Below are positions 5,201-32,200 of a stretch of DNA of 64,000 nucleotides, in pieces; the first letter of the stretch is position 1; every line of letters begins with the position of its first letter. The position numbers and the translations under genes were made by a program. The notes beneath the pieces are model-generated. The model had not been told where the DNA came from and did no database searches. It saw nothing but the letters and a program-made list of their open reading frames with translations. The stretch comes from Arcuatula senhousia (Eukaryota > Mollusca > Bivalvia > Mytilida > Mytilidae): the NCBI GenBank assembly GCA_963971305.1, contig OZ020304.1, positions 78,678,355 through 78,742,354 of the forward strand, read 5' to 3'.

Positions 5201-8200
5201 TGTTACTTTACCGGCGGCAGCGGCGGCGTTAACTTTTTGGAAAAGTTTTATGAGCACCTCCATATCTCAAGAACTATAAGTCCTTGGTTGATGAAACTTG
5301 GTATGCATATGCCCCAGTAGTAGCTTAGCACAGTTGCATCCCCATCTTTTGACCTTGACCTTGATTTTCCGGTTGAATGACTTTGACAATTTTCAATACA
5401 TATCATAGCAATGGAAAAGTTTTGCGAGCACCTCCATATCTCAAGAACTATAGGTCCTAGGTTGATGAAACTTGATATGCATATGCCCAAGTAGTAGCTT
5501 AGCACAGTTGCATCCCCATCTTTTGACCTTGACCTTGATTTTCCGGTTGAGTGACTTTGACAATTTTCAATACATATAATAGCAATGGAAAAGTTTTGCG
5601 AGCACCTCCATATCTCAAGAACTATAGGTCCTTGGTTGATGAAACTTGGTATGCATATCCCCCAGTAGTAGCTTAGCACAGTTGCATCCCCATCTTTTGA
5701 CCTTGACCTTGATTTCTCAGTTGAGTGACTTTGACAATTTTCAATACATATAATATTAATGGAAAAGTTTTGTGAGCACCTCCATATCTAAAGAACTGTA
5801 AGTCCTAGGTTGATGAAACTTGGTATGCATATGCCTCAGTAGTAGATGAGCACAGTTACATCCTCATCTTTTGACCTTGACCTTGATTTTCCGGTTGAGT
5901 GACTTTGATTATTTTTATATATTTGCAATGTTTAAGTTCTATAAACATTTTTTGATCTCAGAAACTGAAAATCCATGTAAATTCAAAATATAGTGGAAGT
6001 AAGAAAGAATAATTGTTTCTGATGGTGCCGGCAGGCGAGACATACTTTAGTGTTAACTCTTGTTTTAAGAATAGATACACTTCCGTTTTATTGAAATGTT
6101 TTGTTGTAAAGTGTTCATTTTCAATATATATGTGTTCTGAATATGTACATTGGAAAAAAAATAATGAGTACATAAAATATCAATTGAAATATTTTTTAGA
6201 TTGTCAAAATCATGAACATGTCCTGTCACCTGAAGCCATAAACAGTTCCAAATCGTTATACAAACACCTTAAGGATGATTTAAACAATGTTAATCCCTTT
6301 GACCATCATAAAGCAATTAAGTCTTGCCAGGTGTTTTTCACACCTTTACAGCTTAATTAATAAGATAATCAAGCTCTTTAACACATTAATCATTGGAAAT
6401 TACATAATGAGGAAGAAAATTAACAGGCATATTTTTATTTTAGAAGAAAAAGTTAAATTTAATATACAAATAAAATGATCACTTTCATGTGCTGAAATAG
6501 TAAACAGATAAAAAAAATACCACCATTTTTTTTCTCTTTAAAATAAAAAATCCACAAATTTATGAATCCACGAACTTGCAAAATTAGGTCAAAACACGAA
6601 AATTGGTACCCACGAATTTAAGTACTTTCACAGTACCATCATATGTTGTCATTTACATGCTTGACTGCTGCGTTGAAACAATTGATAACTACTGTGGTTT
6701 CATTATTATTCATGGGGAATCAATTTTCGTGGTTTTTTGGGGTTGCCATGAACCATGAAAATTGATACACCACAAAAAGGAAACTTACTATGTCTTTTTT
6801 TTGCATAAATTGACATAATAACACATTATCATCTACCAACAAATTAAAATGAATGACAATATAAACTTGTATAGGTCTGACAGTTCCTTTATCAGTTGAT
6901 ATAATAAAGACAACATGAACAACATTTTATCATATTTTATGGTATTATCATTGTAGGCAGTAGGAGGAAACATCATAACAGCTAGTCCTATATCAGATCT
7001 CAACCCTCTGTTCTTAGCCTCGGGTGCCGTGCTGGAAGTAGGAACAGCAAGTAGGTATCAAACGTTATAACAGCAAGCCTTATATCAGACCTCAACCCTT
7101 TGTTCTTAGCCTCAGGTGCCGTTCTGGAAGTAGGAACAGTAAGTAGGTATCAAACCTTATAACAGCCAGCCCTATATCAGACCTCAACCCTTTGTTCTTA
7201 GCCTCGGGTGCCGTATTGGAAGTCGGAACAGCAAGTAGGTATCAAACATTATAACAGCTAGTCCTATATCAGACCTCAACCCTTTGTTCTTAGCCTTGGG
7301 TGCCGTGCTGGAAGTAGGAACAGCAAGTAGCAGGCTGTCAAGTCTCCTATTTTTGGCTGGATTTCACAGAGTGAAAAATCCGGGTTATAAAATATTGAAT
7401 GTCGGGCGGGCGGGTGGGCGGGGAAGAAATTTTCATTACAGTTTTCTCAGCAACTATAAATCACAGCCACTTGATATTTGGTATACAGCATCAGGGTGGG
7501 GTCCCATAACATGGGATGCGATTTCATGTCTGTCGCTCACCTACTTCCTGTTTACTGACTTAGTTAATTTTTGACAATAATGTCCAGTAGTAGAAAATTT
7601 TCGTAACAGTTTTCTCAGCAACTATAAATCACAGCCACTTGATATTTGGTAAACAGTATCAGGGTGAGGTCCCATAACGTGGGATGTGATTTCAGGTCTG
7701 TCGCTCACCTTTTTCTTGTTAAACGAAATCCGGCCATTTCTGTCTTTGACCCATTTTTTCTTCAATTAGTCCCCCCCCAATTTTTTTTACCCCCCCCCCC
7801 CTTCCAAACAAAGTTTGGGGATATATAGGAAAGACCCTGTTTGTCTGTTAACATATCTTTTTAGGGAACTGTTAGATAGCGAGATAGATTTTGATGAATT
7901 TTTACATGAAGAAAATACATCAAATGGAAATGATCTCAAATATAATTTAAGGAAAATATTGTCTTATATTGTTTTTTGTAGATGGATCAAAAAGGAAAAT
8001 CACAATGGATGATAAATTTTTCCTTGGATACAGGAAAACAGCATTAAATCCTGATGAAGTTCTTGTTAACATCACTATCCCCTTCACAAAAGAGGTAACT
8101 ACAACTGATTAAACAAAGTTTATTACTGATATTTAACAATTTTAATATGAAATAACATTAAGTTACAGGGTACCTAAAAAAGAACATGAATCTAAAAAGC

Positions 8201-11200
8201 TTCAGTTAAATCATCATCTTAAATTGATATTTTGATAAAAAATCATCCTTTTGACAAATTAACAAAAATATTTTCTTTTAAATAATTTTTATACCCTTGA
8301 CCAAATCTAAAACCTGATAACCAATATTTTGATTTCTCTTCAGAATGAATATTTTGGAGGATACAAGCAAGCTAACAGGAGAGAAGATGACATAGCTATT
8401 GTCAATGCTGGATTTAGAGTTGTCTTTGACGACAAGAGTAACGTCATCAAGGAAATGAACATGGCCTTTGGTGGGATGGCTCCAACCACAGTGATGGCGG
8501 TCAAGACTATGGCAGGGGTGGTAGGAAGGTATAAAAGATAAAGTGTGCATACCTGTAAAAACAAACTACCTGGCAACAAAAATTATTGAAATATGCATGT
8601 CTATGATACATATTAAGACAATTATTGAAGGAAGAGTGTAAGGATTTTTTTTTTAGCAATTCCTATTCTACATATTTATTGGAGGGATTGAGAACTGTAA
8701 TATATTTCATCAAAGTTATTGTTGTTTTAGCAATATATGTTTAAAATAAGACTTGATCTACACTTTAAAGTTCGTGTAGTATTTAGATAAGCCTCTTCAA
8801 TGCTATACCACTTATATCCTGTTATGAATTGTTTGCCTAAAAGGCTTTTTGCCAAAACATGTCTTTTGTAGGAAATGGGATGACAGCTTATTAGATGAAG
8901 TAACTAAACTGATGGCAGAGGACCTACCACTACCCCCAGGTGCTCCAGGTGGGACAGTTGAGTACAGACGTACTCTGACAACCAGCTTCTTCTTCAAATT
9001 TTATCTGTCAGTACAACTTCAGCTTCAAGAATTGGTAGGTTGATTTTATCTGTCAGTACAACTTCAGCTTCAAGAATTGGTAGGTTGATTTTATCTGTCA
9101 GTACAACTTCAGCTTCAAGAATTGGTAGGTTGATTTTATCTGTCAGTACAACTTCAGCTTCAAGAATTGGTAGGTTGATTTTATCTGTCAGTACAACTTC
9201 AGCTTCAAGAATTGGTAGGTTGATTTTATCTGTCAGTACAACTTCAGCTTCAAGAATTGGTAGGTTGATTTTATCTGTCAGTACACCTTCAGCTTCAAGA
9301 ATTGGTAGGTTGATTTTATCTATCAGTACAACTTCAGCTTCAAGAATTGGTAGGTTGATTTTATCTGTCAATACAACTTCAGCTTCAAGAATTGGTAGGT
9401 TGATTTTATCTGTCAGTACAACTTCAGCTTCAAGAATTGGTAGGTTGATTTTATCTGTCAGTACAACTTCAGCTTCAAGAATTGGTAGGTTGATTTTATC
9501 TATCAGTACAACTTCAGCTTCAAGAATTGGTAGGTTGATTTTTATCTGTCAGTACAACTTCAGCTTCAAGAATTGGTAGGTTGATTTTATCTGTCAGTAC
9601 AACTTCAGCTTCAAGAATTGGTAGGTTGATTTTATCTGTCAGTACAACTTCAGCTTCAAGAATTGGTAGGTTGATTTTATCTGTCAGTACAACTTCAGCT
9701 TCAAGAATTGGTAGGTTGATTTTATCTGTCAGTACAACTTCAGCTTCAAGAATTGGTAGGTTGATTTTATCTGTCAGTACAACTTCAGCTTCAAGAATTG
9801 GTAGGTTGATTTTATCTGTCAGTACAACTTCAGCTTCAAGAATTGGTAGGTTGATTTTATCTATCAGTACAACTTCAGCTTCAAGAATTGGTAGGTTGAT
9901 TTTATCTGTCAATACAACTTCAGCTTCAAGAATTGGTAGGTTGATTTTATCTGTCAGTACAACTTCAGCTTCAAGAATTGGTAGGTTGATTTTATCTGTC
10001 AGTACAACTTCAGCTTGTTGATAATTGAAAATTTTCTTAACATTTTTCTTAGCAACTACATATCACAGTGACTTGAATTTTGTAAATGGCTTCAGTATGA
10101 GGTCCATTATTTTGAGTATTGAAATTAAGTCTGTCAGATATCTACTTCCTGTTTACCGACTTAGTCAATTTTCAACATGACTAGTCAATGGTTGAAAATT
10201 TTCTTAACATTTTTCTTAGCAATTACATATCACAGTGACTTGAAATTTTGTAAATGGCTTCAGTATGAGGTCCATTATTTTGAGTATGGAAATTAAGTCT
10301 GTCTAATATCTACTTCCTGTTTACCAATATAGTTCATTTTGGAGGTAGCAGGGGTATACTGATCCTTATTTATTCTTTTTTATCTGTGTATAATAACTAA
10401 GTTTTATTTTTTGCTTGTTTCAATTTTGACAGCAGCAATAACTATATCATCTAGACAGTACTTACTGTGGTTTCATCATTATTCATGGGGTATCAATTTT
10501 CATGGTTTTTGTGGGTAGGCTTGACCCATGAAATTTAATACCCAACAATAAGGAACTTAAACATTGATCCATAACCTGAGATTTACTAAAACCAAGAATT
10601 TATGAATCCATGAACTGATAGTTTTTGTCTCGCCTGCGAAGCAGAGTGGGACATAGGTGTTACTTTACAGGCGGCGGCGGTGGTGACGGCGGCGGCGGTG
10701 ACGGCGGCGGTAACAGCGGCGTTAACTTTTTGGAAAAGTTTTATGAGCACCTCCATATCTCAAGAACTATAGGTCTTGGGTTGATGAAACTTGGTATGCA
10801 TATGCCCCAGTAGTAGCTTAGCACAGTTGCATCCCCATCTTTTGACCTTGACCTTGATTTTCCGGTTGAGTGACTTTGACAATTTTCAATACATATATTG
10901 CAATGGAAAAGTTTTGCGACCACCTCCATATCTCAAGAAATATAGGTCCTAGGTTGTTGAAACTTGGTATGCATACGCCCCAGTAGTAGCTTAGCACCGT
11001 TGCATCCCCATCTTTTGACCTTGACCATGATTTTTTGGTTGAGTGACTTTGACAATTTTTAATAGATATAATAGCAATGGAAAAGTTTTTCGAGCATCTC
11101 CATATCTCAAGAACTATAGGTCCTAGGTTGATGAAACTTGGTATGCATATGCCCCAGTAGTAGCTTAGCACAGTTACATCCTCATCTTTTGACCTTGACC

Positions 11201-14200
11201 TTGATTTTCCGGTTGAGTGACTTTGATTATTTTTATTGCATATATTTGCAATGTTTAAGTTCTATAAACATCTTTTGATCTCAGAAACTGAAAATCCATG
11301 TAAATTCAAAATATAGTGGAAGAAAGAAAGAATAATTGTTTCTGATAGTGCCGGCAGGCGAGACATACTTTAGTGTTAACTCTTGTTCATCAAAGCACAA
11401 AATTGGTACCTATGAAAATAAATGAATCCACAGTATGTGAGTGTATGATTTCTGAACCATTACAACATTTATGTAAGTTTTACATGGAATTATTTATTTT
11501 TATGTGTTCCTTTTTTTCCATTTGGATATTGATCTACTACTTTTTGTTACTTTTATTAGCTCACCTGACCTGAAAGGTCTACGAAATTTCCATTGAGTCA
11601 ATGTTGTGGGACAACTCCTCTGAAACTGCTGAAGGGATTGCTTTCTTGATCCATGTTCTCTATTAAGTTTGTGAAAATTTTGCATGTTGACTAACCAACA
11701 TGGCCGCCGTTACTAAAAATAAAACAGTTGCTTTAGACCATATTTTTTTGCTTATAGCTCAAAAAGTACAAGAGATAGAGAAAATCTGAAGCAACCATCC
11801 CTCTTCAGCATCAACAGCTCTACAAAATTTTACATTGAGTCGAAGTTGTGGGATGAATCTATATTGGAGTTACTTCCCCTTAATCGTCAAAATTGACCAT
11901 TTTAACAGTTTTTGAACTTTATCTTAAAAACTGTAAGAGCTAGAGAGAAAAAAGAAAAAGAGTTAGCATTGTAAACTGTTCAGTTCATCGAGATCTACAA
12001 AAATGATTTCAGGGTCAAAATTGTCAGATCAACCTTTTAAGAGTTATCCCCTTTTACGGTTTCAATCAATTTTAGCTTATTTTTTTTTTCAAATGGAAAG
12101 CTTTGTAACTTTGTATTCTTGATCTAAAGAGTGTTTTCTATCCTAACTAGTTTCTTTTATGTTACTTACCAAGGTACCAAGTACATGTAGACCATGTTTC
12201 CCACTAGGTAAGAGGCTTTAGCATAAGAGATCAGGTGAACGATTCAGGCTCCTGGGAGCCTCTTGTTTAACTTGATATTGTAAATGTCAAGAAAATTAAC
12301 ATATAATTAATGAAAATCTATTTTTAGAAACTTGGTGGAACAAAGACTGTACCATCGTCATTCAAGAGTGCCACACCAAATTTCAGCAGAGAACCAAGTA
12401 AAGGAACGCGACTGTTTAAAAAGGTGGCAGCAGTACAGCCTTCTTATGATGCTGTAGGTCGATCAGTAACACATGTGTCGGCATTGAAACAAGCCACAGG
12501 AGAGGCTATCTATATAGATGATATGCCATCATATAAAGGTAAGAATATCTGACATTTAAAACTGTCACACATGGCTGTACAAACCACACTCTGGGTACAA
12601 AGTGTTTGATAGGACAAATCCTGATTCATCAGCATTGAAACAATATTTTATCTAACGTCTGTGCAGATGATTTGTAGATGAGTTACCAAAGCTTATGTAA
12701 TTAGCTTTTAGCATATAGCCCTACTATAGATTTATTCAATAAATTCTTGTATGCTTTTCATTATTTTGACTAGTTCAGTAAAGAAAGTAGATGTTTCATG
12801 CTGACTTTCGTTATTTTCTGTTTTTCAGATGAACTATACCTAGCCTTGGTAACCAGTACTAGAGCTCATGCCAAGTTGAAGTCGGTAGATGCCTCTGATG
12901 CCCTGGAGATGACGGGTGTGGTTGATTTTATCTCATATAAAGACGTACCTGGACATAACACCTGGGGGATCATACCTGAGGAGTCATTTGCTTCTGAAGA
13001 GGTAATGAGTAATGTATAAATAATATATGTTTATATAATGAAATTGTGTACATTGTTAAACATTTATTAATTGATTTAAGAAACATGTCTTCAATGAAAT
13101 TAATAATATTCTTTTCCAGCTTTAACAACTTATTGTGTGGTATTTAGGCTTTATGATCCAGAATTGTGTAACATAGATACCTTATATATGAGAGAGAATG
13201 AAGTCTAGATTTTTTTCTGTTCAGTTTTTAATAATTTTTTTCATCCTCAATGAATTATCATGATTTTTCTTTAAAGAATTTATAAGTCAAAGATGGTTCT
13301 GATTTTAAATAATGTTAATAGTTTTATATATGTTTTGTAGGTTCTCTGCATGGGACAGATTATTGGAGCTATTATTGCTGACAACCAGGCTCACGCTCAA
13401 GCTGCAGCTAAAATGGTGAAGATAGATTACGAGGATTTACCTAGTATTATAACAATTAAAGTAAGTATAAATATATCAAACTTTGAAACCAAGATTTATT
13501 CATAATTATTCATCCAGTCTTTGTTTACATAACTAAGTCTTTTCCACAGACCAGTTTACTTTTACACTTTTGCCATATTTGGTTCTCTTTAAGTGTTTAA
13601 AGGATCAAGATCAAAACAGAATGGTGTTTGACAGAAATGTAAAAAAAAATTTAATGAAAAAATGGACAAATACCATATTTTCCTTATGTTGTTGCGACCT
13701 TTTGTTGAATTAGATTTACTCTAATATTTTATGAAAGGCTATGAAGTAAATTAATATGAGACCAAAACATATATGTTAACTCCATTTTCTATTACTTTCT
13801 ATAACCCGCCACACGAAGTGACAGGGTATTATGTTATACCCTCAGTTTTTTTCGGTGTCTGTACGTCCGTCCGTACGTCTGTCCGTCCCCCGAAGGTTTC
13901 CGACCAATAACTTGAAAACGCATCAAAGGATTTGAATGATATTTTGCACAGCTATTAAGTACATTAAAATACAGGTCAAGTTCAATTTCCAGCATGATCC
14001 CAAAAATTGTTTTCGAGATAGGCCACTTTGAAAAATCTAATTTTATGAAATTTTGAATTTCCGACTTGAAAACTTGAAAACAAGTCAAAAGATTTGAATG
14101 ATATTTTGCACAGCTGTTTAGTACCATAAAATACAGGTCAAGTTTGATTTCTAGCATTATCCAAAAAATAGTTTTTGAGATAGGCCACTTTGAAAAATCA

Positions 14201-17200
14201 AATTTCATGAAATTTTGAGTTTCCGACCAATAACTTGAAATAGCATCATGGGATTCAATTGACATTTTGTACAGCTTTTGAGTACAATAAAATACAGGTC
14301 AAGTTCAATTTCCAGCATGATCCGATAAACGGTTTTCGAGATAGGCCACTTTGAAATGAAATTTTATGAACTTTTGATATTATAACGTGGCGGGGTATCA
14401 TTTAATGTCCCATTAGATGCCCTATTTTTGGCCGGATTTCACTGAGTGAAAAGTCTGGGTTATAAAATGGTGAATGTCGGGCAGGCGGGGGAAAAATTTT
14501 CGTAACAGTTTTCTCAGCAACTACTAATCACAGCCACTTGATATTTGGTATGCAGCATCAGGGTGGGGTCCCATAACCTGGGAACCAATTTCAGGTCTGT
14601 CGCTCACCTACTTCCTGTTTAACGAAATCCGGCCATATTTGACTTTGACAGATTTTTATGAGCTGTATTGCTAAGACAGATTTATTCTCCTTTCTGTTGA
14701 TTTGACTAAAAAAGTTAGAAAAGTGCAAGCACTCAATGTTGATTTTACTGAAAATACGAAAAATAATGACAATTTTACTGACATGCATAAAATGAAGTAA
14801 ATGGGTCGGATTTCATATTCCTATACCTCCCTTTTGAAAAGTGGAGAAGGGTTTATTTTGTGCACTGTTGTGGCAGGAAATGTTGATGTGATATAAATTG
14901 ATTCTTACAGGATGCTATTGCTGCCGAATCATATTGGCAGGAGCCGAGATCTATTTCCTGTGGTGACATCGAGGAAGGGTTTGAAAAATCTGATCATATT
15001 ATTGAAGGTGAAGTTCACATCGCAGGTCAGGACCACTTTTATCTAGAGACACATGCAGCCCTGGCTGTTCCTAAAAATGAAGATGATGAAATGGAACTGT
15101 TTGTGTCCACACAAAACCCATCTGAAACCCAGGTAAAAACTTTGATTGATAGAGATACTAGAAAATATGGAGAATTTTTACCCCTTCCTGCAATGTGGAG
15201 CAGGGATAAAGAAATGCTGGATGTCTGTCCATGCAAATGTGGGTGTGTGCGTTGGTCACTTTTTTCGTAATAGTTTCCTTGGTTACTATTAGTCGTAGGC
15301 ATTCAGGTAGGATCTCATATGATGGAATGTGTTTTCAGGTCTATCCCTTATCTACTTCCTGTTTTAATGAACCAACTACTGTGGATTCATTTATTTTCAT
15401 GGGTATCAATATTCGTGGTTTGATGAAAAGAATCAGTTTGTGGAATCTTAAATTTGTGGTTCTGAAGTCTGCAGCACACAGACAAATGTTAAATTTCCTT
15501 TTCATGGTATCAAATTTTGATAGTCAAGGCCAACCCCTAAAATCGAAACCCCACGAATGAAACCACAGTAAATTTGTTTGCCACTCAGAGGGTGACCCCT
15601 GATTTTTGTAATATTGAAATCTCTCTGTATGGATTCCTAAGGGCAGTTGAATAAAAATTTCAAATAACCATGATTACAAAGCTCAATTGTAATGAAAAGT
15701 AAAATATTTGATTTAAAAAAAGGGGGGGTGATTAGCAAGGCATAAAATGCTATGAGTTTGGTTGTGATTTATATAGGTTTTTATTAGTCACTTTGACACT
15801 ACTATTCGCCGTCTTGTGTTGTCCAGAGTCCTGAGTACTGTGGTGTCACAAAAATTTCCATCACTGTTTTCCAGGCAACTACATGACACAACCTCTTGAT
15901 ATTTGGCCTGTAGATTCCTCCTATAGTACTATATGGTGTTAGCCAGTCTTATAGCTGTTATTCATCTTCTTCCTGTTTACCGAATATATTAAGACGTAGG
16001 GGACATACGTCTTCCATGGAAGACTGCCATTCTTGTGTTATTATGCAGATTGTAATAGCCTTTAATAATAGGTCGTGATGAGGGAGTTGGTTCTGTGAAT
16101 TAGATTTGTGTGTCTAAATTAAAGTTCTGTGAAGTATATTTGTGTTGTTTATCTAAAATAGAGTTCTGTTTTTATTGTAGCTTGTGACAGCAGAGACATT
16201 AGGTGTTAAAGCAAATAAGATTCTTGTTAGAGTGAAGCGGCTTGGAGGTGGCTTTGGTGGCAAAGAAACTAGATCTATCATGTTGTCCACACCAGTGGCA
16301 CTGGCTGCCCACAAGTAAGTGTATTATATAACCTGTGTCTTCTATAACTTCAATAAGAGTTGTGCCCAGTATCAGTATTTTACTGAAAATTCTCCTGCTT
16401 AAAGAAACACACAAAGAACAACAACAAAAAACCACCCCAACAACAAACAAATATACAAAAAAGAAAACAAATCAAGATCTGACACACTTAAGATCAGAAA
16501 TATAAATTGCTCTGAACTGAAGAATGATCTTTATTCAACATTTTGATATAAGAATTATCTCTACAACTTTATTATACTTTAATTTAAGGTTAAAGAAGCC
16601 AGTACGGTGTATGTTGGAGAGAGATGAGGACATGTTAATAACAGGAGGCAGACATCCCTTCCTTGGTAGATATAAGGTAGGGACAATTCAAATTGTTAAA
16701 ATTAAAACTATAAAAATCAGAAAGTTTAACAGTTTACAATGTTTCTGTATTACGTTGAAAGTATTATTATTCATGGGACACCAATTTTTGTGGTTTTCGT
16801 GGGTAAGGAAAACCACGAAATTAAGTTCCCAACAAACAGAGAATTTTGCATTGCTTTCAATAGAGATTTTTTTAAAACCACAAATTCAAGAATCCACGAA
16901 TATGCAGTTGACTCCCAATCCACGAAAATTGATACCCACGAATTTAAGTACCTTCACAGTAATATGTAACCAGTAAAACTGAGAGATTCTTAACCAGACC
17001 TGTTTTTTTTTCAATTGGACATTATCTGATCCCGCCACTGTCACCAATGAAAACTTGTTATGATGAATATTCAGCTTACAGTACATGCTGTTATATGTAT
17101 CAATCTTTTTTACAGATAGGATTTACTGCTGAAGGAAAGATTATAGCAGCTGATGTTCAGTTGTACAGTAATGCTGGATGTACACTTGATTTATCTGGAG

Positions 17201-20200
17201 CCGTGAGTATTTAAATTTACCTGTTTGTTAATTTTAAAAAAATAATAAAACCATATTTTTTTAAGGGAGAAAAATTTCTGAAGTCTGATACAAATGCATA
17301 AAAATGTCTATTTTGAGTCCTTATTATTCAGATATTTTGAAATATTAACATTAGATGACATGCACTTGATTGTTGACCTTAATGTATATGCATACATGTA
17401 TTTACAATTTAAGATTGGTGACATTGCATTACTACGTTTTGGTAATGGTTATAAGATAGAAAATGTCCATGTTAAATGTTGGGTTTGTAAGACCAATATA
17501 CCATCCAATTCATCATTTCGTGGTTTTGGAGGACCACAAACTATGTTTATCACCGAAACATTTGTTGACGGGGTTTCAACGTATCTAAACATGCCTCCTG
17601 AACAGGTAACCTTGACCTTTTATCCCCTCGCTCTTCATGTACACAGAACATTATTTAAATGGTGTATGATGATTATTCTTTCATTCCTCAGTGCTAGTAT
17701 TCTATAGTCGATATGCGTTCCTTTATTGCTTTAAAAGCTGGTGTAAATGTATAAATACAAAGCAAACTGTCTGTGGACTATGATCAGCATGTCAGTTTTT
17801 AGCAAGTCCATGAATCCACCAATTTGTGTAAAATAACCTGTAAAATCTTTTCTTAGCAGTAAAGTTTGAGATCAAACTTTTTGCAATTTTTTTTAGATTT
17901 TTGAAAAGAATATGGCCTGAGAACTGTTTATCCAAAGAATCTCCAATACATTGGCTGACAGTCATCTAAGTATTTATTCATTTACTTATAGCAGCACCTA
18001 AGATAAGGTGTATTCCACTTACAGATATATTGCTTATTTATTACCCCTCACTTATTCTTTCTGCACAAAGGTACTAGACAGAGCTTTATTCCACATAGAC
18101 AATGCCTATAACATCCCTAACGTGAAAGTGACGGGCTGGGCCTGTAAGACAAACATCTCCTCCAACACAGCCTTCCGAGGGTTTGGAGGACCTCAGGGAA
18201 TGTTTGTCTGCGAGACCTTTGTTGATGAGGTAGCTTCCTTCCTAGCAGTCTGTCCGACCCAGGTAAGTAATGCTATTGTGCTAGGCTAAGTGTGTTTTAG
18301 TATAGTGAAGTAGCTAAGGCTAGAAAATTCTGAAATGAGAAATTAAACTTCTTGAGACACTTGTTCGATCTAATTTAGTAGAAAATAAAGAAAACAATTT
18401 CATTATACAAAGGTTCAGTTTGAACTCTGCAGACAAAACACAATTTGATATATATACATGTATATATCATTTCATAATTTATAAGCATTTTGTTATGAAC
18501 AAATTTCAAAATGTTGCAATTAAATAAAATTTGACATTTAATGTTTTATGTGGAGCTGATCAATAACTGATAATATGAAAGGTAAATTTTGCATTTTGAT
18601 ACAGTTTTGTACATGTATGAATAACCTATAGAAACAGGTGTGTTACATACTATTATAGGTACAGGTTAGTATTGAAATACATGTTATGCAGATAGCTAAA
18701 CCAGCAGGTTATCCTTCTCAAAACAGTTCTACATTTGTCATGTTATTGCAGAATGCAAAATCAATTTCATTACATTTTACTCCTTTCTATTTGTTTATTT
18801 TAAATTACTTCCTAAACCAATAAAATATGTTAATATAAGATCATCTGTGTCATTGAAACACACCAAGAACTTTAAAATAGGATCAAGCTAGTACCTGAAG
18901 TTTTCATGCCAACTTTATTAATGAGTAAAATGAATTCAATTGGAGACTTGTTAAACTATAACAATATTTTGATATTTTATCTTAGGTTCGTAAACTGAAC
19001 TTGTACAACATTGGTGACTTCACTCATTTTAATCAAGAATTACAACATTGTAACATCAGAAGATGCTGGGATGAATGTTACAGAAAATGTAACTTTGTTG
19101 ACAGAAAGAGACAAGTAGAAATCTTTAACAGGTAAAGGAATAAAACAGAATACAACAAGGTTATATTTGCCACTACAGAAGAGAATTAGTTTAAATCTTT
19201 GATAACTGGAATACTGATAAAGTTGGCAAGGGCTATGTTGCCTAAAAAAGAATATTTCAATTATATTTTGGGTTCCTGCAGGGTCAAAAATGATCTGGGA
19301 CCTAAAAGCTTTTTTTTGTGGGATTTTCAACCTCCACATGGTTAAATAACCTTCCTATAGAATAAACTAAAAAAAACTTTGATCTCATTAAAATGCACTT
19401 TGAAATAAACCTCAAAATGGTTTTAAAGTGACCTGGTGTCTTGTCAGAAGGGGGCATTCCAGATTTGACAGATTTTCATAAAATTATGATATGCAAATTC
19501 TCAAATAGTATTCGGTCCCTATTTAATATTTCAGATCTGCTTTTATAGTTCTAGAGTTTAAGGATCCACAAAAGATTGTTTACAGATAAAAAAAATATTG
19601 GGCTTTTCCATACTTGATGCTGGTCCTTGAATATATTACATACATGTAGATAGAGAAAAGCAAGTCAAAATCTTGACAAATTATGTTATTGGAAAACACC
19701 AAAATCTGACTTAAACTTAATAAAAAAAAACAAGAAATTGCTAGTTTCTTTTGGATGTTGAGCAGTTAAAGATAAATATCACATTTTATTTCAGTCAAAA
19801 CAGATGGAAGAAGCGAGGTATTTGCATGATTCCCACAAAGTTTGGTATTGCTTATACAGCTACATTCCTTAATCAGGTATGTTAATCCTATAATTGACAG
19901 AAAAAAAAATCTTGTTTGCTTATAATTTTAAAGGAATGTTCAGCAGATTTAATTGTTAATATTGGGAATGCTTAAGGAAAAGTTTGTATGTATCTAAATG
20001 ATTAAAAACATCATTAAAGCGTAATTTGTCATTGTGTTATTTGTTGGAAGATACATGTAATGAAAATGTATCTATTAATGTCTTTTTACAGATTGTCTCT
20101 TAAACCATTGAAACTGTGTCTACTTTATCTTAAGAGTGTGTTTTATGATACAATCCAATTAAGAAGCTCTGGGAATGGGTGATCAAGCTCATCACTAACT

Positions 20201-23200
20201 TTTGTTTCAGCAACTGCAAAGCAACATTTTTTTCCTAAATTTACTTAAATAAGTCACAAGTCACACGCTCAAACAAGATTTTCATTGATGTTGATGGAAT
20301 TTTATTTGCCATTTTGATATGTATACTATCTTTTACAGGCAGGGGCATTAGTAATGGTCTACAAAGATGGGTCTGTTCTTATCACTCATGGTGGAGTAGA
20401 AATGGGCCAAGGTCTTCATACAAAGATGATACAGGTATGAGAAAGGGGATATTGGATTGGGCTAGTAACAGTGATTTTTCTAGCGCTGGTCACTTTCTTC
20501 ATTGGCGAAAAGATATTCTGCTTGACGAAAAATTTTTAAACCATTTTCGCCACTTCAATTTTCAAAAGTGTAGAACATTTTGTCATTTCTTTATGACAAT
20601 CAGTTAAAATTTTCGTCATTTAATTCCCTCTTTTCAGTTTACATAGGTTATCTCCAATAAGCAGGAGTTATCTAACTTTGCAGGAGGTGTAATTTCTTAA
20701 CCCCTCTGTTCTTTTCATGGAAAATGAAAGAAAAATCTAGAGAGATCTGAAAGAAATTTGGGATTTCCCTAAATTTCACAAGAACTTTACTGTATAAAAT
20801 CTTTAAAGTTTACAATTTTATTGCAGATTATTTAATAAGTATTTTTGTAAAAGGAATTGTTTTAAAAAGTTACATAACTATCTCTAAATGTGGGGAAATC
20901 CCTTTTCTTTCTGAACCCCTCAAATTTATCAAAGGATTTCAACAATAAATCCAGAGAAAAAAAATTTCATACCCGCTGTAAAGTTAGATAACTCATGCAT
21001 ATGGGAGATAACCTATGTTTACTGAAAAGAGGGAATTGACAACATAGATCAATCTGAAGCCCTATTGATTTATAACCCCAAGCTGAGCTTACACCAATTA
21101 TGTTTTGACAGTAATTAATGGTTAATTGTTTATATGGTCATGATGGACAGGTGCTTGACCATCGCTGATTGATTTTGAAATCAATCATGTATGAAATATT
21201 ACTGACCAATCAAAAATGAGTTTATTTTAGTGTGAGCTGATTTAAATATTGATTTGTTTGTCAACCCACGTGCTCTGCCAGACCATGTAAGCCAAAATGA
21301 CAAATACTATGTAAATATCAGAACAACTGAAAGTAAATATAAATAAAAGGATTTACCTTCATGAAATTATTTTATTAAAAACATTCCTGTAATCCAAACA
21401 CACCCCTTTTCATGAATTAAAATGAGATCAATAAAAGAACTTTTCACGTTTACATCTCCATCGGGCCCCTTGAAACATTAACTAAAAATTCTAAATAGAA
21501 AGCAATGACTGGAGCTTGTTGGTCTAAGACTTAAATCAATTTTAATTGTCATTTTTTTAAATTAAAATTTTTTATATCAGTAAGAATTGTAGACACAAAA
21601 CTTATAAGTAAAGCCCCTTATGACATGTAAGATGTTCTGTTCTGTTGTCTGTAAATTTCTCCTTTTAGGGACCACCAGACTTTTATAATTAGTAAAACAT
21701 AAACAGAACTGCTTCTTCAAATGAAGATTTTTAGCTTCCATCATGTCCATGAGAATGTAAAACTTGATGAGTAATACTTATTTTACCTTACTTAGTTTGT
21801 AAAAAGGGGGGTTGTTCTCATTTGTTTTTTGCCTAAAATAATATTAAAGTCAAAGAATTTGCAGTACATTAATGAAAAAAAAAACATTCTGAGAGTGATC
21901 TATTTTTCTATAAGATATGATTAAGAGTGGAAAAATAAATTCAACAAATGTTTGAATATATTTTATTGAACATGATAACTGTCAATAACTGTGGTAATCT
22001 GTGTCCTGTTCATGGTACTGAAAATATAATATGCATAGCTATAGCCAGCATATATTGGAATTGGTGTATCAGTATTTTTGCTTCAACCAGACTGCCAAAA
22101 GCAAACATGGTTATGGATTAAGAGGTCGAACATTTTGGTCGACCGCTAAAGTGACTAAAGTCCTCAAAATCCTGGAAAAAACCCTGTAGTAAAGGAGGGG
22201 CTTTATTGGTGGTGTATCACTACTCATGTTGAAGTTGAAATAGGACAAGGTCCTCACATAAAGATGATACAGGTATGGGGCATTGATTGTTAAGTTTTGG
22301 GAGGGGAAGGGGTGGGCATTTGATGAAAATGGAATAGGAAGGGCATTGATGTGGTCTTAAAAGATAAATGATGGTGGAGTATAAATTTGTGAAGTTCTTA
22401 ATTCCAAGATAATAAAGGTCCTGTATTAGATTGGAACAGTGGGTGATGTAAGAGAATATAGACAAAACATTTAGACAAATTAATTCATTTTACAAGTATG
22501 TAAATTTAGTGAAGAAGTATATAGATTCTTTTTAAAACTTAAAATACCCTTACCAACTTATACCCTTACCAAGTTATAATACCTTTACCAACTTATACCA
22601 ATAGTTTTGAAAGAATTGCTTTTACATGTCTGTTATATGTTGAATAGGTTGCTAGTCGTGCTCTACAGATTCCCACATCAAAAATCCATGTCAGTGAAAC
22701 CAGTACAAATACTGTACCCAATACCTCAGCTACTGCAGCCAGTGCCAGCTCAGATCTGAATGGAATGGCCGTTCAGGTTAGTGTTGAATTTAGATAACCT
22801 TCCCTTATTACATAGATAGCAGTGAAATATCGAGATTTCCGAGTGAACAGAAATCGTTTATCTCACTGAGTGAAATAACTAAAACGCGGGAACATTTAAT
22901 TAACTGTTATTCGGCGTTACCTATAACGTCGTCTGTGACGTCGAAAACCATTGAGCCTGCATGAAAATAGTCCAACCGAAAATGTTCGTAATTCAAGCAT
23001 TAATAAAGCCTTAATTGAACATTTATATATGTAATAAATAGTATAACAAACTCAAGATTCCGAATATGGGAAATATTCAACTTGTGACCGAACAACCTGG
23101 CGCACTCGTGAATTATTGGGTTGTTCGGTCACTCGTTGAATATTTCCTCATATTCGGAATCATTCGTTAGTTATACTATAATTATTTACCCAATACCTCA

Positions 23201-26200
23201 GCTACTGCAGCCAGTGCCAGCTCAGATCTGAATGGAATGGCCGTTCAGGTTAGTGTGTTATTTGATTGTCTGTTCAGTTGAAGAAGTTTTACAATAGTCT
23301 CTACGGTTTTTAGTTGCTATAGGACGCCATCTACCTTGGTCTCTTGTGTATTAAAATTGAGAATCTCTAGAAAGACAAAAGATTGTAAGAAATGCATTTA
23401 TTATGCATTTTGCTTTGATAAAATTATGATTTCTAAGTTTATGTTGGAAAAAATATCATGTTAAACAATAAACCAATTTAATATTTTTGTGATCAATCAG
23501 CAGAATTAGTAACATAATTTATAGATTTATGATGTCGATCATCAAGACAACACTATCATATGTTCCTACATCTATACACAAAACATGTCAAGGCATTAAT
23601 AAGAAATAAATAGGTAATGTAACTAATGAGCATTTAGCTCACAGATGTGCTTATTTGATTCAAATATATTATGTTCAATTATTTCTGTCTTTGTAGATGG
23701 CCTGTTTGGAAATCGTTGAAAGATTAGAGCCTTACAAGTCCGGAAATCCCAATGGTGAATGGGAGGACTGGGTATGTTATATGGGGATACATTTACTATT
23801 GTGGGGATCAATTTTTTAGGTTTCTCCAAAAGAAGGCATTTTGTTTGATTTTTAATTTCAAGCCTTTCATATGTTTCCACAAGGAATCAATACAAAATTA
23901 GCTCTTAGTTGATACCTTGATTTTGTAGTTGACTTGCAACCACAAAAACACAAATAATAGTGAGCCGGTGAGTGAGTTAATGATTTGGTGTTTAATGCCA
24001 TAAAAACACTTTATAGGTAATGTAAGGGGGAAATGAAACCTAGCATGAATTATAATGTTATAACAGAGTTCAAGACATTACCCAGTATTATTTACAGTAA
24101 TCCTTGATTAAGGGTCTGTTCTATTTTAAGGTATTGGTACAAAGAGGAGAAACAACTTCTCTTGTGAATAAAACCAATTGTATTCAACATTATTGGTTGT
24201 TTATCTTTCATTTATCTTTTAGGTTGATTCAGCATATTATGATAGAGTGAATCTCTCTTGCTCAGGATTTTACAAGTAAGTCCACCATTACCAAAGAAAA
24301 AGATCAGACAATTAAATTCACACCCAATGAAACAGTCAGACATTTGTGGGAAAATTATGATTAAGTATATGCCTTAAACATCAAATCTAATATGAAGCTT
24401 CTCAGATTTTATTGTCTCGCCTGCCAAGCAGAGCGGGACATAGGTGTTACTTTACTGACAGCATCACCATCTTTTGACCTTGACCTTGATTTTCCGGTTG
24501 AGTGACTGTGACAATTTTCAAAACATATATTAGCAATGGAAAAGTTTTGTGAGCACCTCCATATCTCAAGAACTATAAGTCCTAGGGTGATGAAACTTGG
24601 TATGCATATGCCCCAGTAGTAGCGTAGCACAGTTACATCCCCATCTTTTGACCTTGACCTTGATTGACTGACAATTTTCAATACATATACATGTAATAGC
24701 AATGTTAAGGTTTTGCAAACACCTCCATATCTCAAGTATTATTGGTCCTAGGTTGATGAAATTTGGTATGCATATGCCCTAGAAATAGATTAGCACAGTT
24801 GCATCCCCATCTTTGACCTTGACCTTGATTTTCTGGTGGGGTGAATTTGATATTTCTATTGCATATATAAGCAATGTTTAAGTTCTTTAAACATCTTTTT
24901 ATAGCAGAAACTGAAAATCCATGTAACTTCCAAATATAGTGGAAGTAAGAAAGAATAATTGTTTCTGATGGTGCCAGCAGGCGAGGCATACTTTAGTGTT
25001 AACTCTTGAACATTGCTTCATTTATTTCTCAATTAATACCACAGTTGTAAGTCTATAATGGGGTAGAGTTTTTTCAAATTTTAATTATTCATGATCATGG
25101 TTTTTCACTGTTGTGACATAAAAAAAACAACAAGAGTGTATGTGTGTTTTGCTTTTGAGTTTAAGTACATTGTTCATGAGAAAGACATTAGCTTAGTGTT
25201 TGTACAAAGTGTATTTCAATTAAGTTTTTTTATTGTATTAATCATTTAACCGGGGTGGCTTTTTCATTACAAAAAAACAGACGTCGAGCCCTTTAACTTT
25301 GATCTTTCCTTTACAGAACGCCAGATATAGAGCCATTTAACTTTGACCTTTTCATTACAGAACACCAGACGTAGAGCCATTTATCTTTCACCTTTCATTT
25401 CAGAACACCAGACGTAGAGCCATTTAACTTTGACCTTTTCATTACAGAACACCTGACATAGAGCCATTTAACTTTGAAACACAGACAGGAAGACCTTTTA
25501 ATTACTTTACTTACGGAGCAAGTTGTTCTGAAGTGGAGATAGATTGTCTGACAGGAGATCATACGGTAACTTTAGGAAGATTTAAGCTTACACATTATCT
25601 GGTATATATGGTTGATACTTAGGCCATCCTTAAAAAAATATTTGTTTGCTGTTTACCTATTCACATTTTTCAATGTAGGTAGGTAGGTTTTTCTGAAAAA
25701 AACAAAAAAGTGCCTTATTTTTAAAGAAAGTATGCTAAAAATAGAATGAAAAAAAATTATTCCCAGAAAGGGTGATAAAATTTTTTGAGTCGGTAGGTTT
25801 CACAGCGAGTCAGTCGAAAACAGCAAACCAACAATTTTTTAAGGACGGCCTTAAGAGTAATGAATGATTCTGAAATTATGAGGCTCATACTTTTGTCAAT
25901 ATATTGATATGATTGTAGGGACACTTTGCCTTCAATGTTAAATTGAAAATTTTTGACTTATTCTACTGTACTGACAGCTCACCCTATTTTCTAAGTGACA
26001 AGACCACTTGGTCATTCAAATCTATCAATTGGTTTTAAAAAACTGGCTACTAGTCTAACCTGATTTCTTTTTCACCTTGATGGTTAATCCATTGGATATT
26101 AATACAGGTTAAACCTATTGTGGTATTTAAATACAGTTAGTTGTACTTTTTACACTTTATCTATTTCAGCTTGGTAGACAGGTCTACCAATGTATACTTC

Positions 26201-29200
26201 TGTATTACTACTAATAAGATAAATAAAAATAATAAATAAATAAATAGTTTATTAGAGTGTCACATATTTGATCAAACATATTTATACAATTACAATAACA
26301 TCATAATTAAAAAGATCAAATATCTAGCCTTGAGAAGACTTATGAGACACTTATGTACATACTTCACTAAAAACTTTTAAAATACAATGTATATACATAA
26401 CTTCACTGTAAAAATAACTATTACTTAAAAATTATAATTGTCTATTAAAACCTATAGTGTTCGCAATATTTAAAATAAAAATTTAAATATGCAATTCATG
26501 TACAAAATTTTTAATTTCAAAACTACGACAGCCCCTAAAACAAATCGGAATATTAAAAGTAATAATAAAACTTTAATATGAAAAGTTGAATTAAACACTT
26601 AAAAAACATATAACTTAAAGATATTTAAAAAATAAATAAATAAATATAAAAAAAAAATAAAATACACCGTAAAATAAAAACTTCTAAAAAGCGTTTTGAC
26701 CAACACGTCATACAATTAATAACTTCAAATATTATTTTTATATTTTAACGGCATGAAATGTAACTTTGTCTTAATTTACTTAAATAAACAATTTTCGCCT
26801 CTGAAATGAGTTAAAAATAACATATGAAAGTGAAGCTTGAATTTCATCACATGACATTATATGAGAAAATTTACTATCCATATCAAGCGTATCAAAGTCA
26901 ATGATTGAGTGTCTTGCTTTTGTGAACAGTTCGTATCTAAAATCATCGTATAAGGGGCACATCATCAAAAAATGTTTTTCGGTTTCTACATTATTGGTGT
27001 CACAGAACCGACAGAGTCTCTGTTCAACTGGTGTACGCGGCCGGGCATATCGTCCTGTTTCAATCGCCAACGGCAGAGATCCGCTACGGAACAGGGCAAC
27101 AGTTCGACGCACATTCCTTGGAATTTGAAGTTTGAGGTACTGTTCAGTTTTTATCCCCGTTTTATATGTTCGATAAGTTCGTAGTTTATTACCATTTGGA
27201 TTGTTGTTGTCATCGTGCATTTCTCTAATAAAATCATTGTTATCAATAACGTCTAAACGTTCTTTAATTTGTCGCATCACAGTCTTGGTTGAAACAGATG
27301 TATCGTTCACTATATCGTAGGCATTAATTGTCTGCACAAAACTAGTAACTGTTGCGTACCAGCCCTTCCGACCGTTTTTAGTCCACTCAGTTACCTTCCG
27401 GGTTAAGCGTTCATCGTCCGATCGGATGCAAGAAAGGCGTTGTTTTGTGAAGCATGAAGTCCAACCCATATCTCCCCGAACTGCAGTATTTGAAGTATAT
27501 CTACCGACTGACATGAAAAGTTTAGCTGCTTTGTTCTGGACTGAATTTACTATGGAATGTACTTTCGTTCCCCATATTCCGGAACCGTAAAACAACACTG
27601 GTTCCACCATAGATGAGTACAGTTTAGTGTAAACGGCATGCGTCATTCCTCCAGCACTAAGGAATTTTCCGTACAACGCACCGAGTGCCCTGCTAGCGGA
27701 TTTCGATAACTCGCGTATTGCTTTGGTGTACGTTAGGTTCTCATCAAGCCACAGTCCTAAATATTTGTATGATGGAGCATAATTGATAGGTTGTCTAGAA
27801 CAAACAAAATGAAAGTTACTACAGGCAACGGATGGGTTACGGAAGTGTACCACGTTACTTTTCGAAGGATTCACGTTCAGCTTCCACTGACTACACCATT
27901 CAGATACGACATCTAGCATACGTTGAAGGCTCGGTTCATCGGGTGCAACCAACGCAATATCATCGGCGTATAGAAGTATGCTCAATAAACTGTCGCCAAT
28001 TCGGACACCGCATTGTAGATCATTAATTCGTTCTGCTAACTCATTAATGTAAATTGCAAATAATGCGGGGGATAATAGGCATCCTTGTTTTACGCCACAG
28101 TCCACGTCAAACCAAGGTGTGTAAGCATCATTTACACGTACGGTACATCTAACGTTCTCATAAAGTGATTGAATCGCCGAGAGAAATTTTCCGGTAATTC
28201 CGGCACGTTTAAGTTTATACCAGAGCAAATTACGTGGAACAGAGTCAAACGCTTTTCGCATGTCTATGAAACTTACAAACGTCGACTGTTTGGAAATTTT
28301 TCGGTTAGAAATCACTGATGTTAAACTGTAGATGTGCTCTTCACAGCTACGTTTAGGCCGGAAGCCATTCTGCTCCTCACACAAAATGTCATTGTCTTCT
28401 AGTTGTTGGCATAGTCGGAAGTTTAAGACACTACAGTAGATTTTACTGGGAACCGATGTCAACGTTATTCCTCTATAATTAGTTGGTAAACGTTTATCGT
28501 CTGATCCTGGTTTAAGAATCGGGTTCACAATACCGGAAGTCCATTGATCAGGCACTTTTCCGAGCTCGAAACATCCCTTACAAATAGCATACACAGGTCT
28601 ATTGCGTTTTCGTTCTTCAGCACTTCTGCTGGGATTTCATCGTGTCCCGAGGCTTTTCGTAATTTCGCATGCTCAACAGCTCTTACGATTTCTTCTTGAC
28701 TGATGTTAGCATTGAGTTCGTTCAGCTCGTCGTTGCCTTCGTTGTTATCCGGATAGTTGGCTTTATCGATGTCCGTATGTCTCGTAAAAAGAGTTTCGAA
28801 GTCTGATTTCCACGTGTTCAGAACTGAGACTCTATCCGTACTAATACTACCGTATTTGTTCCTTTCGGTCATTTGCTATTCCAAGCTTTCCAATACTTCG
28901 CCAAAAATCCCGTTTACAATTGGAGTCTAGTTGATCTTGTAGTTGTTTTTGTCTCTGGTCGTTATATTTTCTTTTGAATTTACGATTTAGTCTATCAAAC
29001 GTTTTCCTTTCTGAGCAATAGATTTCCTTTAACCGTCGTTTGCGAATCGGAGGGCCCTTAAAATTAAGCCATTGTTTCTCATATTCACATGTTACGTTCC
29101 ATTGGTTTTGAAGGGTTTCGTTCCAGTACGGTTTATAAAAGGACTTCGCTTTTTTTGTTCGTTGTCTTACAATAGGCAATTTATTGCGCATTTCAAGATG

Positions 29201-32200
29201 AATAAGCTCTTGAAATTCATTATACACACTCTGGACGTCACGGTCTACCTCGAGTAAGCGTTCTATCCTTGTGATCGTATCTCGTACCATCTGATCTATA
29301 TTGTCATCGGCAAGAAAGTTTCCCGGAATGTGTCTCGTATTGCGTTTGATCTTATCTCCGATCTCGACTCCAGCCTGATCTTGAATTATGGGAGTAATTG
29401 AAATCGCCACAGATAATTGTTTTACCTTTGAGCTGGTGACAATAAACTTGATTCAGAAGAGTTTCAAAAAAAATTTCCTGATCATTTTGACGGGTCGATA
29501 TACTTGGCGGTAAATAGCATATTGCAATACAGAAATTAAAGTCGTTAAGTTTACTTTTAAAATGTATCCATAATATTCCTTCAATACTTTTGTCAATAAG
29601 CTTATAATGAAGTTTAATTTAAAGTGATTGTCAAGTTGATTAAATATATATAAATTGATAGTTTTTAAAAATGGTATATTAAGGAAAGATAAGATAAGAT
29701 AATTTTAATAACCTAATCACAGTGCCTAAGAATTGCGCAGAATAATCAAACAGTTATAACACAAAACATATATGATTTGATTGATTGGAGTACATATAAA
29801 AAGACAAACAATATATCTAATAACATCAACAAATAGTTCTCTAATTATTAAACAAGACAACTCAAATTAATAACACATATATTAAGCACGGAGGGAAACA
29901 GCCCCCTCCCTAGAAAGGATGACCTCTCTTTCTTTAAATAATTTATTTATAAGTTTGGAAACTGATGATATAATAAAATTATCTTCAGAAACCAAGAGCC
30001 AAGTTAGTTTTTGTTCATTATTCAATATGTTTAAGTTCTTATATTTATCTATTATTTGTTTAAAATTATCATTTCTTATTGTATTTAATTTTGAACACTT
30101 GAGTAAAAAGTGTTCCTCATCTTCAACTTCCTGTTTGCACATTCTGCAGATTCTGTCCTCTGCTTTAATATTTATATAACGGCCTCGCTCAATGTCTAAG
30201 TTATGGGAACTTATTCTGAATTTAGTTAGTATTTGTCTGTCCTGTTTATTGACATGTAGTAAGTATGGTTCAAATTTAAATATATTTTTTTTATTTTCTA
30301 TATGTGCGCAGCTTATTGCCTTGCTCAGATTTCCTTTTATCATTAAATAAATTATTTTTCCAAATTTGTTGAAACTTTTCCTTTAGATTCTTTTTCACTT
30401 TATTTATTATAACAGTTTCTTTTAAATTATTAGCATTCTTATATAAATGTGACAATTTTAGATAGTTGAATAATTCTTTTATGCATCCCAGCCATGATTC
30501 TTGACTCTGGTTCTCAGTATTTTTATAATATGTATATGCATCTTGTAGTAAAGATATTTGATTGTTGGAATTGATAATATATAACCAGTACTTAATCATG
30601 TTAAGTAAAACATCATAAAGAATAGGATAACTTCCTAGTTCTCCTCTACATGCCTCATCTGAGGACTTAGATCTAACACCTCAAGAAAATTTACAAAATT
30701 TAGTGTGTATTTTTTTCAACTGAGATTTTATTTATTTGTTTACTTATAAAGTCATCATAATTTTTTTTTAATTTATTTTGAGAAAATATTCCCCAAATCT
30801 CTGATCCATAAAGTAGGATTGGCTTCACAGTATGATTAAATACATGTAATAATGTTTTTTATGCTAGGGGAATCAGCTGTAAATGTTTTTCTTAATTTAA
30901 ACAGTGCCTTCTTTCCTTTATTACTTATTTCTTGTCTGGCAATTCCAAAGTTGCCAGATGCTGTAAACACAATACAAAGATATGTGTATTGTTTTACATT
31001 TTCTATTAAAGTGTCATTATATTTAATTTTAATGTTTTTTAGTCTGAAAGTGATGAAATGTGTACATGGCACAATCTCCATTTATCAGCAGTAAATTTAT
31101 CTGGTATAAAAAACAGCAACTGTTTTTAATACATCTTTCATATATTATTACTCTTTCTGTTTACAATCTCAATATCTTTAAGTTATATTTAGTAATAATA
31201 TGTTGGTTTATTATACCCCCCACAAACAGTTTGGGGGGTATATAGGAAACACCCTGTCTGTCTGTCCGTCATTCTGTCTGTCCGTCCGTCTGTCCACATA
31301 ACTTGTAAGTGCTTCTCCTCCTAAACCCCTTGAAGGATTTTGCTGAATCTTAAAACAAAGGAAGAACATCATATGTTGATGTGCATGAAGAATTTTCATC
31401 TCACTCTGACATCATTCAGCGGACATAATTGGACTTAGACTTTTATAATACATCATTAAATGGGAGACCCCGTAAGTGCAACTCCTCCTAAACTGCTTGA
31501 TGGATTTTGATGAAACTTTGAATAAGGAAGAACATCGTATGTAGATGTGCATGAAGAATTTTCATCGCACTCTGATATCATTCAGGGGAGATAATTGGAC
31601 TTAGACTTTTTAGTCCCCTACCGGCAAAAGCCGAAGGGGACTATAGGTTTGCGCTTTGTCCGTCTGTCTGTCCGTCTGTCTGTCTGTCTGTCCGTCTGTC
31701 TGTCTGTCCGTCTGTCACGCCTCAGTTTTCCACACTTTTTTTCTAAACGCTTATAGATAATGAACTGATTTTTGGTATGTGAGTTTACCTTGATTAGTTA
31801 CAGATCAAGTTTGAGTTTCGTGCCGGTCCGCAAATTTTTATGGGAGTTATGGCCCTTTGAACTTTGAAAATTCACTAAAATTTCAGTTTTCCGCACTTTT
31901 TTTCTAAACGCTTATAGATAATGAACTGATTTTTGGTATGTAAGTTTACCTTGATGAGTTACAGATCAAGTTTGAGTTTCATGCCGGTCCACAAATTTTT
32001 ATGGGAGTTATGGCCCTTTGAACTTTGAAAATTTGCTAAAATTTCAGTTTTCCGCACTTTTTTTCTAAACGCTTATAGATAATGAACTAATTTTTGGTAT
32101 GTGAGATTACCTTGATGAGTTACAGATCAAGTTTGAGTTTCATGCCGGTCCACAAATTTTTATGGGAGTTATGGTCCTTTGAACTTTGAAAAAATTCAAT

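What the first reader, a model, noticed from the sequence alone, without database searches (positions are those of the whole stretch)
17414..18262. Mutually exclusive XDH exons that swap the substrate-binding Arg880
Two adjacent 192-nt exons, both phase 0-0, each with its own splice sites and an intact frame, encode the same 64-residue block of the Mo domain (36/64 identical by hand count, no gaps). Exon B has the conserved D-R-A-L-F with the Arg equivalent to bovine Arg880; exon A has D-I-A-L-L. Both keep FRGFGGPQ. Bovine Arg880 orients purine substrates and is lost in aldehyde oxidases. Alternative splicing could therefore give one gene two substrate ranges, xanthine-oxidase-like and aldehyde-oxidase-like. 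I know of no described XDH with such a switch.
Basis: partly seen in the sequence, partly recalled or inferred. Interest (0 to 1): 0.88.

Follow-up and report, generated by a model that had tools for sequence, protein, structure and literature searches.

The report
Mussel XDH gene with swappable active-site exon
A mussel-like bivalve's xanthine dehydrogenase gene carries two interchangeable copies of one active-site exon, one with and one without the arginine that holds purine substrates, and Mytilus proteins show the same two versions, so one gene may make two enzymes with different substrates.

Summary
The window lies in a complete XDH gene: 33 constant exons plus exons A (17414-17605) and B (18071-18262); either one gives an intact 1337-residue protein. 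The blocks share 36 of 64 residues. B keeps the equivalents of bovine Arg880 and His884; A has Ile and Arg.

The strongest new evidence is comparative. Mytilus galloprovincialis 'XDH isoform X2' and M. californianus 'isoform X1' are identical at 1216 of 1263 positions outside this block and 37 of 64 inside it, with edges at the window's exon borders. The galloprovincialis protein and an M. edulis model carry Gln for Arg880; the californianus protein keeps Arg. The A-type blocks group together, support 84/88. Synonymous sites between A and B are saturated while dN is 0.33, and neutral drift does not reproduce A: 0 of 20,000 runs at 0.5 changes per site.

Not shown: RNA usage in this species, strict exclusivity, substrates. 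Block A as a whole stays nearer XDH than AOX, and Glu802 is kept. 'Splicing removes the purine-binding arginine' is well supported; 'becomes an aldehyde oxidase' is plausible but untested.

The parts
17116..17202 (+). Constant XDH exon just before the alternative pair (ends DLSGA), phase 0
   Evidence: Gene model, GT-AG sites and phase
17414..17605 (+). Alternative exon A, 64 residues, lacks the Arg880 equivalent (Ile at codon 17423-17425) and the His884 equivalent (Arg at 17435-17437), keeps FRGFGGPQ
   Evidence: A-type blocks in Mytilus proteins P0043 and P0157; neutral simulation
17606..18070 (+). Intron of 465 nt between A and B, too long by itself to prevent A-B joining (inference)
   Evidence: Gene model
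18071..18262 (+). Alternative exon B, 64 residues, Arg880 equivalent at codon 18080-18082 and His884 equivalent at 18092-18094, keeps FRGFGGPQ
   Evidence: B-type blocks in P0042 and P0041
18986..19131 (+). Constant XDH exon just after the pair (begins VRKLN)
   Evidence: Gene model
2238..35453 (+). Window part of the XDH gene: 26 constant exons plus A and B, ending at the stop codon; 7 further constant exons lie upstream of the window (ATG 10,091 bases before base 1)
   Evidence: tblastn with a recalled human XDH, splice sites and phase by hand, full model

Best explanation
Exons A and B are an old tandem duplicate of one XDH exon, kept under selection as alternative, in all likelihood mutually exclusive, cassettes of a single XDH gene. 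Choosing B gives a conventional purine-hydroxylating xanthine dehydrogenase. Choosing A gives an otherwise identical molybdo-flavoenzyme whose Mo pocket lacks the arginine that binds the purine carbonyl (Arg880; here Ile, Gln in Mytilus) and the neighbouring histidine (His884; here Arg, Met in Mytilus), while the equivalents of Glu1261, Glu802 and Phe914 stay. The A form should use xanthine poorly and favour other substrates: aldehydes, N-heterocycles, or a purine in another pose. Shown here: anatomy, intact frames, the same two versions in Mytilus, signature of past selection. Inferred: RNA usage in this species, exclusivity, and the substrate change.
For: Complete gene, intact with either exon. 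M. galloprovincialis isoform X2 against M. californianus isoform X1: 1216/1263 identical outside, 37/64 inside the block. A-type blocks group, 84/88. Saturated synonymous sites (pS 0.84) against dN 0.33; 0 of 20,000 neutral runs at 0.5, 0.75 or 1.0 changes per site keep an open frame with 36 identities. Both alternative exons have AAG acceptors against 1 of 32 constant exons. Lys/Arg at 884 in 0 of 162 distinct blocks with Arg880 and 9 of 39 without; A follows the Arg-less pattern. Arg880 role: passages of PMC3624778, PMC8615798, PMC3864932.
Against: No RNA data. Both-in and both-out are also in frame. A evolves faster than the rest: window A to Mytilus A 37/64, B to B 44-50/64, rest of protein 994/1263. 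Residues 880, 884 and 916 differ between window A and Mytilus A. At 0.2 and 0.3 changes per site neutral runs still pass (3642 and 670 of 20,000). No splicing regulator site was recognised.
Confidence: 0.7

Rival explanations
1. Full switch: splicing turns one gene between xanthine dehydrogenase and a true aldehyde-oxidase-like enzyme.
For: Arg880 lost; Leu883 and Arg884 as in AOX blocks such as P0166; best solved structure for exon A alone is mouse AOX3, 59.3 bits against 49.8 for the best XDH entry. The title of a cited paper says human XO changes to aldehyde-oxidase type on such mutations (reference list of PMC3624778; the paper itself is not held).
Against: Other AOX entries score only about 1 bit above XDH. 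Profile score of window A is -20.6 bits (AOX minus XDH), AOX controls from +20.5. Glu802 and Thr1010 equivalents stay.
Confidence: 0.3
2. Exon A is real and selected, but its product is a poorly active or regulatory form (for example a partner in mixed dimers, or a form left with NADH oxidase activity), not a form with new substrates.
For: Arg880 and Glu802 mutants of the human enzyme lose activity (passage of PMC3624778); A diverges faster than B.
Against: Residues 880, 883 and 884 change together in the pattern of Arg-less relatives; catalytic Glu1261 kept.
Confidence: 0.2
3. Two independent exon duplications, one in the window's lineage and one in Mytilus, ended with a similar Arg-less exon.
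For: Holding window A with window B is not rejected (p-AU 0.145); the two share FVD at 926-928; exon pieces of this gene duplicate readily.
Against: A-type blocks group at 84/88 and share Phe885, Glu892 and the PEQ end; the exon borders are identical.
Confidence: 0.15
4. Exon A is a duplicate on its way out, seldom or never spliced in.
For: Faster evolution of A; no RNA data.
Against: Open frame, both splice sites and FRGFGGPQ intact; neutral simulation; an A block stands in database models of two Mytilus species.
Confidence: 0.06
5. In Mytilus the A block belongs to a separate, recently duplicated XDH gene, so those proteins say nothing about splicing.
For: Only proteins, not Mytilus gene structures, could be seen.
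Against: The entry is named isoform X2, and outside the block it is 96.3% identical to the congener's isoform X1 with the difference confined to the block.
Confidence: 0.06

Closest known systems
COQ-2a/COQ-2e mutually exclusive exons (helminths, annelids, molluscs; PMC7434440, passages seen)
   Same: Two exons of equal length in one gene, chosen alternatively, remodel the core of an active site and the substrate; occurs in molluscs too.
   Different: Other enzyme family; COQ-2 has RNA and genetic proof, the XDH pair has neither here.
CYP4F3A/CYP4F3B (named in PMC7434440; original papers not seen)
   Same: Splicing changes an enzyme's substrate.
   Different: Vertebrate P450; XDH is a molybdo-flavoenzyme and the pair here toggles one defined substrate-binding arginine.
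Animal xanthine dehydrogenase (ordinary single-exon form)
   Same: Whole protein, cofactor and pocket residues of the B form.
   Different: A second, Arg-less version of one exon.
Aldehyde oxidases
   Same: Loss of Arg880; Leu at 883 and basic residue at 884 as in some AOX.
   Different: AOX are separate genes and in the rows compared also lose the Glu802 equivalent; block A is an exon of XDH and the A form keeps Glu802.

Membership tests
Xanthine dehydrogenase (B form) | Homology over the full length to annotated XDH | tested here: met
   77-78% identity over the full length to Mytilus proteins named xanthine dehydrogenase/oxidase-like
Xanthine dehydrogenase (B form) | Pocket residues Glu802, Arg880, Phe914, Glu1261 | tested here: met
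   All four present in window B
Xanthine dehydrogenase (B form) | Oxidation of hypoxanthine and xanthine | not testable with these tools
   Needs enzyme assays
Aldehyde oxidase (A form) | Arg880 replaced | tested here: met
   Ile in window A, Gln in Mytilus A
Aldehyde oxidase (A form) | Glu802 replaced | tested here: not met
   Glu in the constant exon; Leu in the two bird AOX rows compared
Aldehyde oxidase (A form) | Block groups with AOX | tested here: not met
   Tree of 31 blocks and profile score -20.6
Mutually exclusive exon pair | Homologous neighbouring exons of equal length and phase with own splice sites | tested here: met
Mutually exclusive exon pair | Products contain one or the other, never both | tested here: inconclusive
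   P0041, P0042, P0043 and P0157 each show one block, but no RNA reads were available and the database keeps one protein per 90% cluster
Substrate switch by alternative exons | Measured difference in substrate between the two forms | not testable with these tools
   Needs expressed enzymes

The most novel reading that the evidence does not exclude
Mytilid bivalves run a one-gene XDH/aldehyde-oxidase switch: regulated choice between two ancient exons toggles the purine-binding arginine, so tissue or oxygen state decides whether the enzyme makes urate or oxidises aldehydes and N-heterocycles.
Probability: 0.3. Interest if true: 0.92.

Novelty: new variant of a known kind. Interest (0 to 1): 0.8.

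Why it matters
Arg880 is a central specificity residue of molybdo-flavoenzymes, and AOX enzymes are generally understood to have arisen from XDH by gene duplication (recalled). Two exons that toggle this residue inside one gene would be another route to the same change and a rare case of splicing that rewrites an active site; the authors of the COQ-2 paper call such cases rare (PMC7434440). It is directly testable in mussels. If true, xanthine oxidase assays on mussel tissue would measure a mixture of two enzymes.

Tried and rejected
Considered and rejected: (1) chance open frame: excluded by the match to B and the simulation. (2) Exon captured from an AOX gene: the block does not group with AOX and its profile is nearer XDH. 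(3) Poison exon: no stop, frame kept. (4) Exclusivity enforced by frame: both and neither are in frame. (5) Splicing signals between A and B: no TGCATG, one GCATG, one PTB-like site, a few short inverted repeats; nothing convincing without relatives' introns. (6) A-type forms outside mytilids: none recognised among the 39 and 85 proteins listed by the two region searches, but the database keeps one protein per 90% cluster and one search also missed the known A-type P0043, so absence elsewhere is not shown. (7) Counting XDH/AOX genes in the own genome: not completed. (8) Structure prediction was not run: the Mytilus proteins exceed the 1200-residue limit, and spliced window proteins are not letter-for-letter in the DNA.

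Limits of controls: the 201 distinct blocks come from 221 of 223 fetched proteins, two lacking the motif; they are what three searches returned, not a random sample, and the 39 without Arg880 include the two Mytilus A blocks but not the window's A. The AOX set was 25 ids, 24 distinct blocks; the XDH set 35 distinct blocks. The simulation starts from B, ignores indels and does not model changes in B. Of 7,982 matches only the best 120 were listed.

Full report
Observation. The sequence at 17414-17605 and 18071-18262 is as described. I rebuilt the whole gene: tblastn of a recalled human XDH found exons across the window, borders were set by splice sites and phase, and seven further exons were found in 20 kb of upstream DNA of the same contig. 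The model has 33 constant exons plus A and B, with AG acceptors and GT donors at each internal border, ATG 10,091 bases before window base 1 and stop ending at 35453. With A or with B the protein has 1337 residues and no internal stop; with both 1401, with neither 1273, also in frame. The block is residues 884-947 and corresponds to bovine 877-940 (recalled numbering). A and B are identical at 36 of 64 residues and 116 of 192 bases.

Copies in the genome. Exon A searched in the window's own assembly (1.036 Gb, 1803 contigs) gave itself, exon B, and one exon on C9 at 35%. The C9 place lies in a diverged XDH/AOX-family gene: its block reads VLTCCMPYNSPYQIP...FRGFGTPQ and its Glu802 position is Gly in GGKGPDS. 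I could not count the family in this genome, because that request did not complete.

Relatives. A full-length search with the B form matched 7,982 proteins, 120 listed. The nearest full-length rows are an unnamed protein from a 4,376-base contig (P0041, 77%), M. californianus 'xanthine dehydrogenase/oxidase-like isoform X1' (P0042, 78%) and M. galloprovincialis 'isoform X2' (P0043, 77%), so the window is probably from a mytilid or a close relative (inference). P0042 and P0041 carry B blocks with Arg880; P0043 carries VLEQALLMFENCYKIENL...FRGFGTPQS...SPEQ, an A block. P0042 and P0043 are identical at 1216 of 1263 positions outside the block and 37 of 64 inside; cut into 64-column bins from column 62 on, the other 20 bins have 0 to 6 differences and the block has 27. 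The change starts and stops where the window's exons do. A second region search, from P0043, added M. edulis P0157 with VLEQALLMFENCYKIENV...FRGFGVPQS; that model is badly built elsewhere and breaks off after the block. The region search from the window's A form (39 proteins of 82 candidates) did not list P0043, so these word-based searches miss relatives. The named non-mytilid bivalve proteins read (Crassostrea, Pinctada, Mercenaria, Mactra, Ylistrum, Sinanodonta, Solemya, Mya) have Arg at this place, but the database keeps one protein per 90% cluster and would hide an A isoform.

Age and selection. In a tree of 31 blocks the three A blocks form a group (84/88) apart from the three mytilid B blocks (91/89); neither is starred, and holding window A with window B is not rejected (p-AU 0.145). 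One duplication before the split from Mytilus is the simplest reading; two independent ones are not excluded. Between A and B, pS is 0.84 (saturated; 18 of 24 fourfold sites differ) and dN 0.33. Neutral drift from B leaves no stop and at least 36 identities in 3642, 670, 0, 0 and 0 of 20,000 runs at 0.2, 0.3, 0.5, 0.75 and 1.0 changes per site. With synonymous sites saturated, A has been selected for most of its life (inference). It is nonetheless faster than B: window A to M. galloprovincialis A 37/64, B to B 44, 46 and 50 of 64, rest of the protein 994/1263.

What changes in the pocket. I tabulated 19 pocket or near-pocket positions, 5 of them inside the block. In the window exon choice changes two, 880 (Arg to Ile) and 884 (His to Arg). 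The equivalents of Glu802, Phe914 and Glu1261 are the same in both forms; 771, 876, 1009 and 1011 differ from human XDH in both. Mytilus A has Gln880 and Met884, and at 916 Thr (M. galloprovincialis) or Val (M. edulis). Arg880 contacts the purine carbonyl, and mutating Arg881 and Glu803 of the human enzyme lowered activity (passages of PMC3624778; PMC8615798; PMC4334109). In mouse AOX3 the positions are Tyr885 and Lys889. A seven-residue change towards XOR that included Tyr885 to Arg left little activity, and adding Lys889 to His restored it and gave hypoxanthine turnover (passages of PMC3864932), so 880 and 884 work together. In 201 distinct blocks, Lys or Arg at 884 occurs in 0 of 162 with Arg880 and 9 of 39 without; Leu at 883 in 22 of 162 and 32 of 39. 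Window exon A (Ile880, Leu883, Arg884) follows the Arg-less pattern. Against a simple AOX label, AOX-minus-XDH profile scores are -20.6 (window A), -29.6 and -26.4 (Mytilus A), -66.4, -40.9 and -48.2 (B blocks); left-out XDH controls reach -25.7 and AOX controls start at +20.5. For exon A alone the best solved structure is mouse AOX3 at 59.3 bits, but other AOX entries score 50.7 and the best XDH 49.8, so I give this little weight.

Splicing. Both alternative exons use AAG acceptors, 1 of 32 constant exons does. B's acceptor is the weakest of 33 scored and its donor the strongest; A's acceptor is sixth weakest and its donor 21st from the weakest. Weak acceptors fit regulated exons (inference). 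No regulator site or pairing stood out.

Literature. The searches listed no paper, by title and start of abstract, on such a switch: XDH with mutually exclusive exons (5 papers), mollusc XDH isoforms, XDH and Mytilus, AOX with exclusive exons, Mytilus with AOX and XO, alternatively spliced XDH. Only open-licence papers are held. The closest kind in print is COQ-2 in helminths, annelids and molluscs; its authors call such active-site switches rare and name CYP4F3 as another (passages of PMC7434440).

Verdict. The exon pair is real, old and selected, and both versions stand in Mytilus proteins. Loss of the purine-binding arginine in the A form is read directly from sequence. Exclusive splicing is likely, and a changed substrate range is likely in direction but unknown in kind.

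Noticed in passing
window 538-1020, 6968-7330, 8998-10016, 25261-25477, 34054-34233; L004 5001-5432: Tandem arrays (periods 54, 92, 45, 44, 85 and about 100) whose units contain an exon-intron junction of this XDH gene, up to 22.6 copies. Predicted XDH of Pinctada imbricata (P0050) repeats the same exon piece as the 92-base array, and M. edulis P0157 repeats another exon piece many times. Junction-seeded minisatellites may be a habit of this gene in bivalves.
   Followed up: partly
window 22216-22275: Diverged partial copy of the XDH exon at 20339-20434, in the following intron.
   Followed up: no
window 26780-28636 (-): Reverse transcriptase of a retroelement (PF00078, E 7e-37) inside the large XDH intron 25566-33461.
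   Followed up: partly
window 53745-54128 (-): Start of a GDA1/CD39 nucleoside phosphatase-like gene (PF01150, E 1.4e-7) downstream of XDH on the other strand; a nucleotide-breakdown gene as neighbour.
   Followed up: partly
L006 748-8317 (G000 contig C9): Diverged XDH/AOX-family gene with Gly at the Glu802 position and FGTPQ, probably an AOX-like paralogue.
   Followed up: partly
P0042 and P0043 against the window, bovine position 1009: The pocket Phe1009 equivalent is Tyr in the window gene, M. galloprovincialis, P0041 and Crassostrea virginica but Phe in M. californianus.
   Followed up: no
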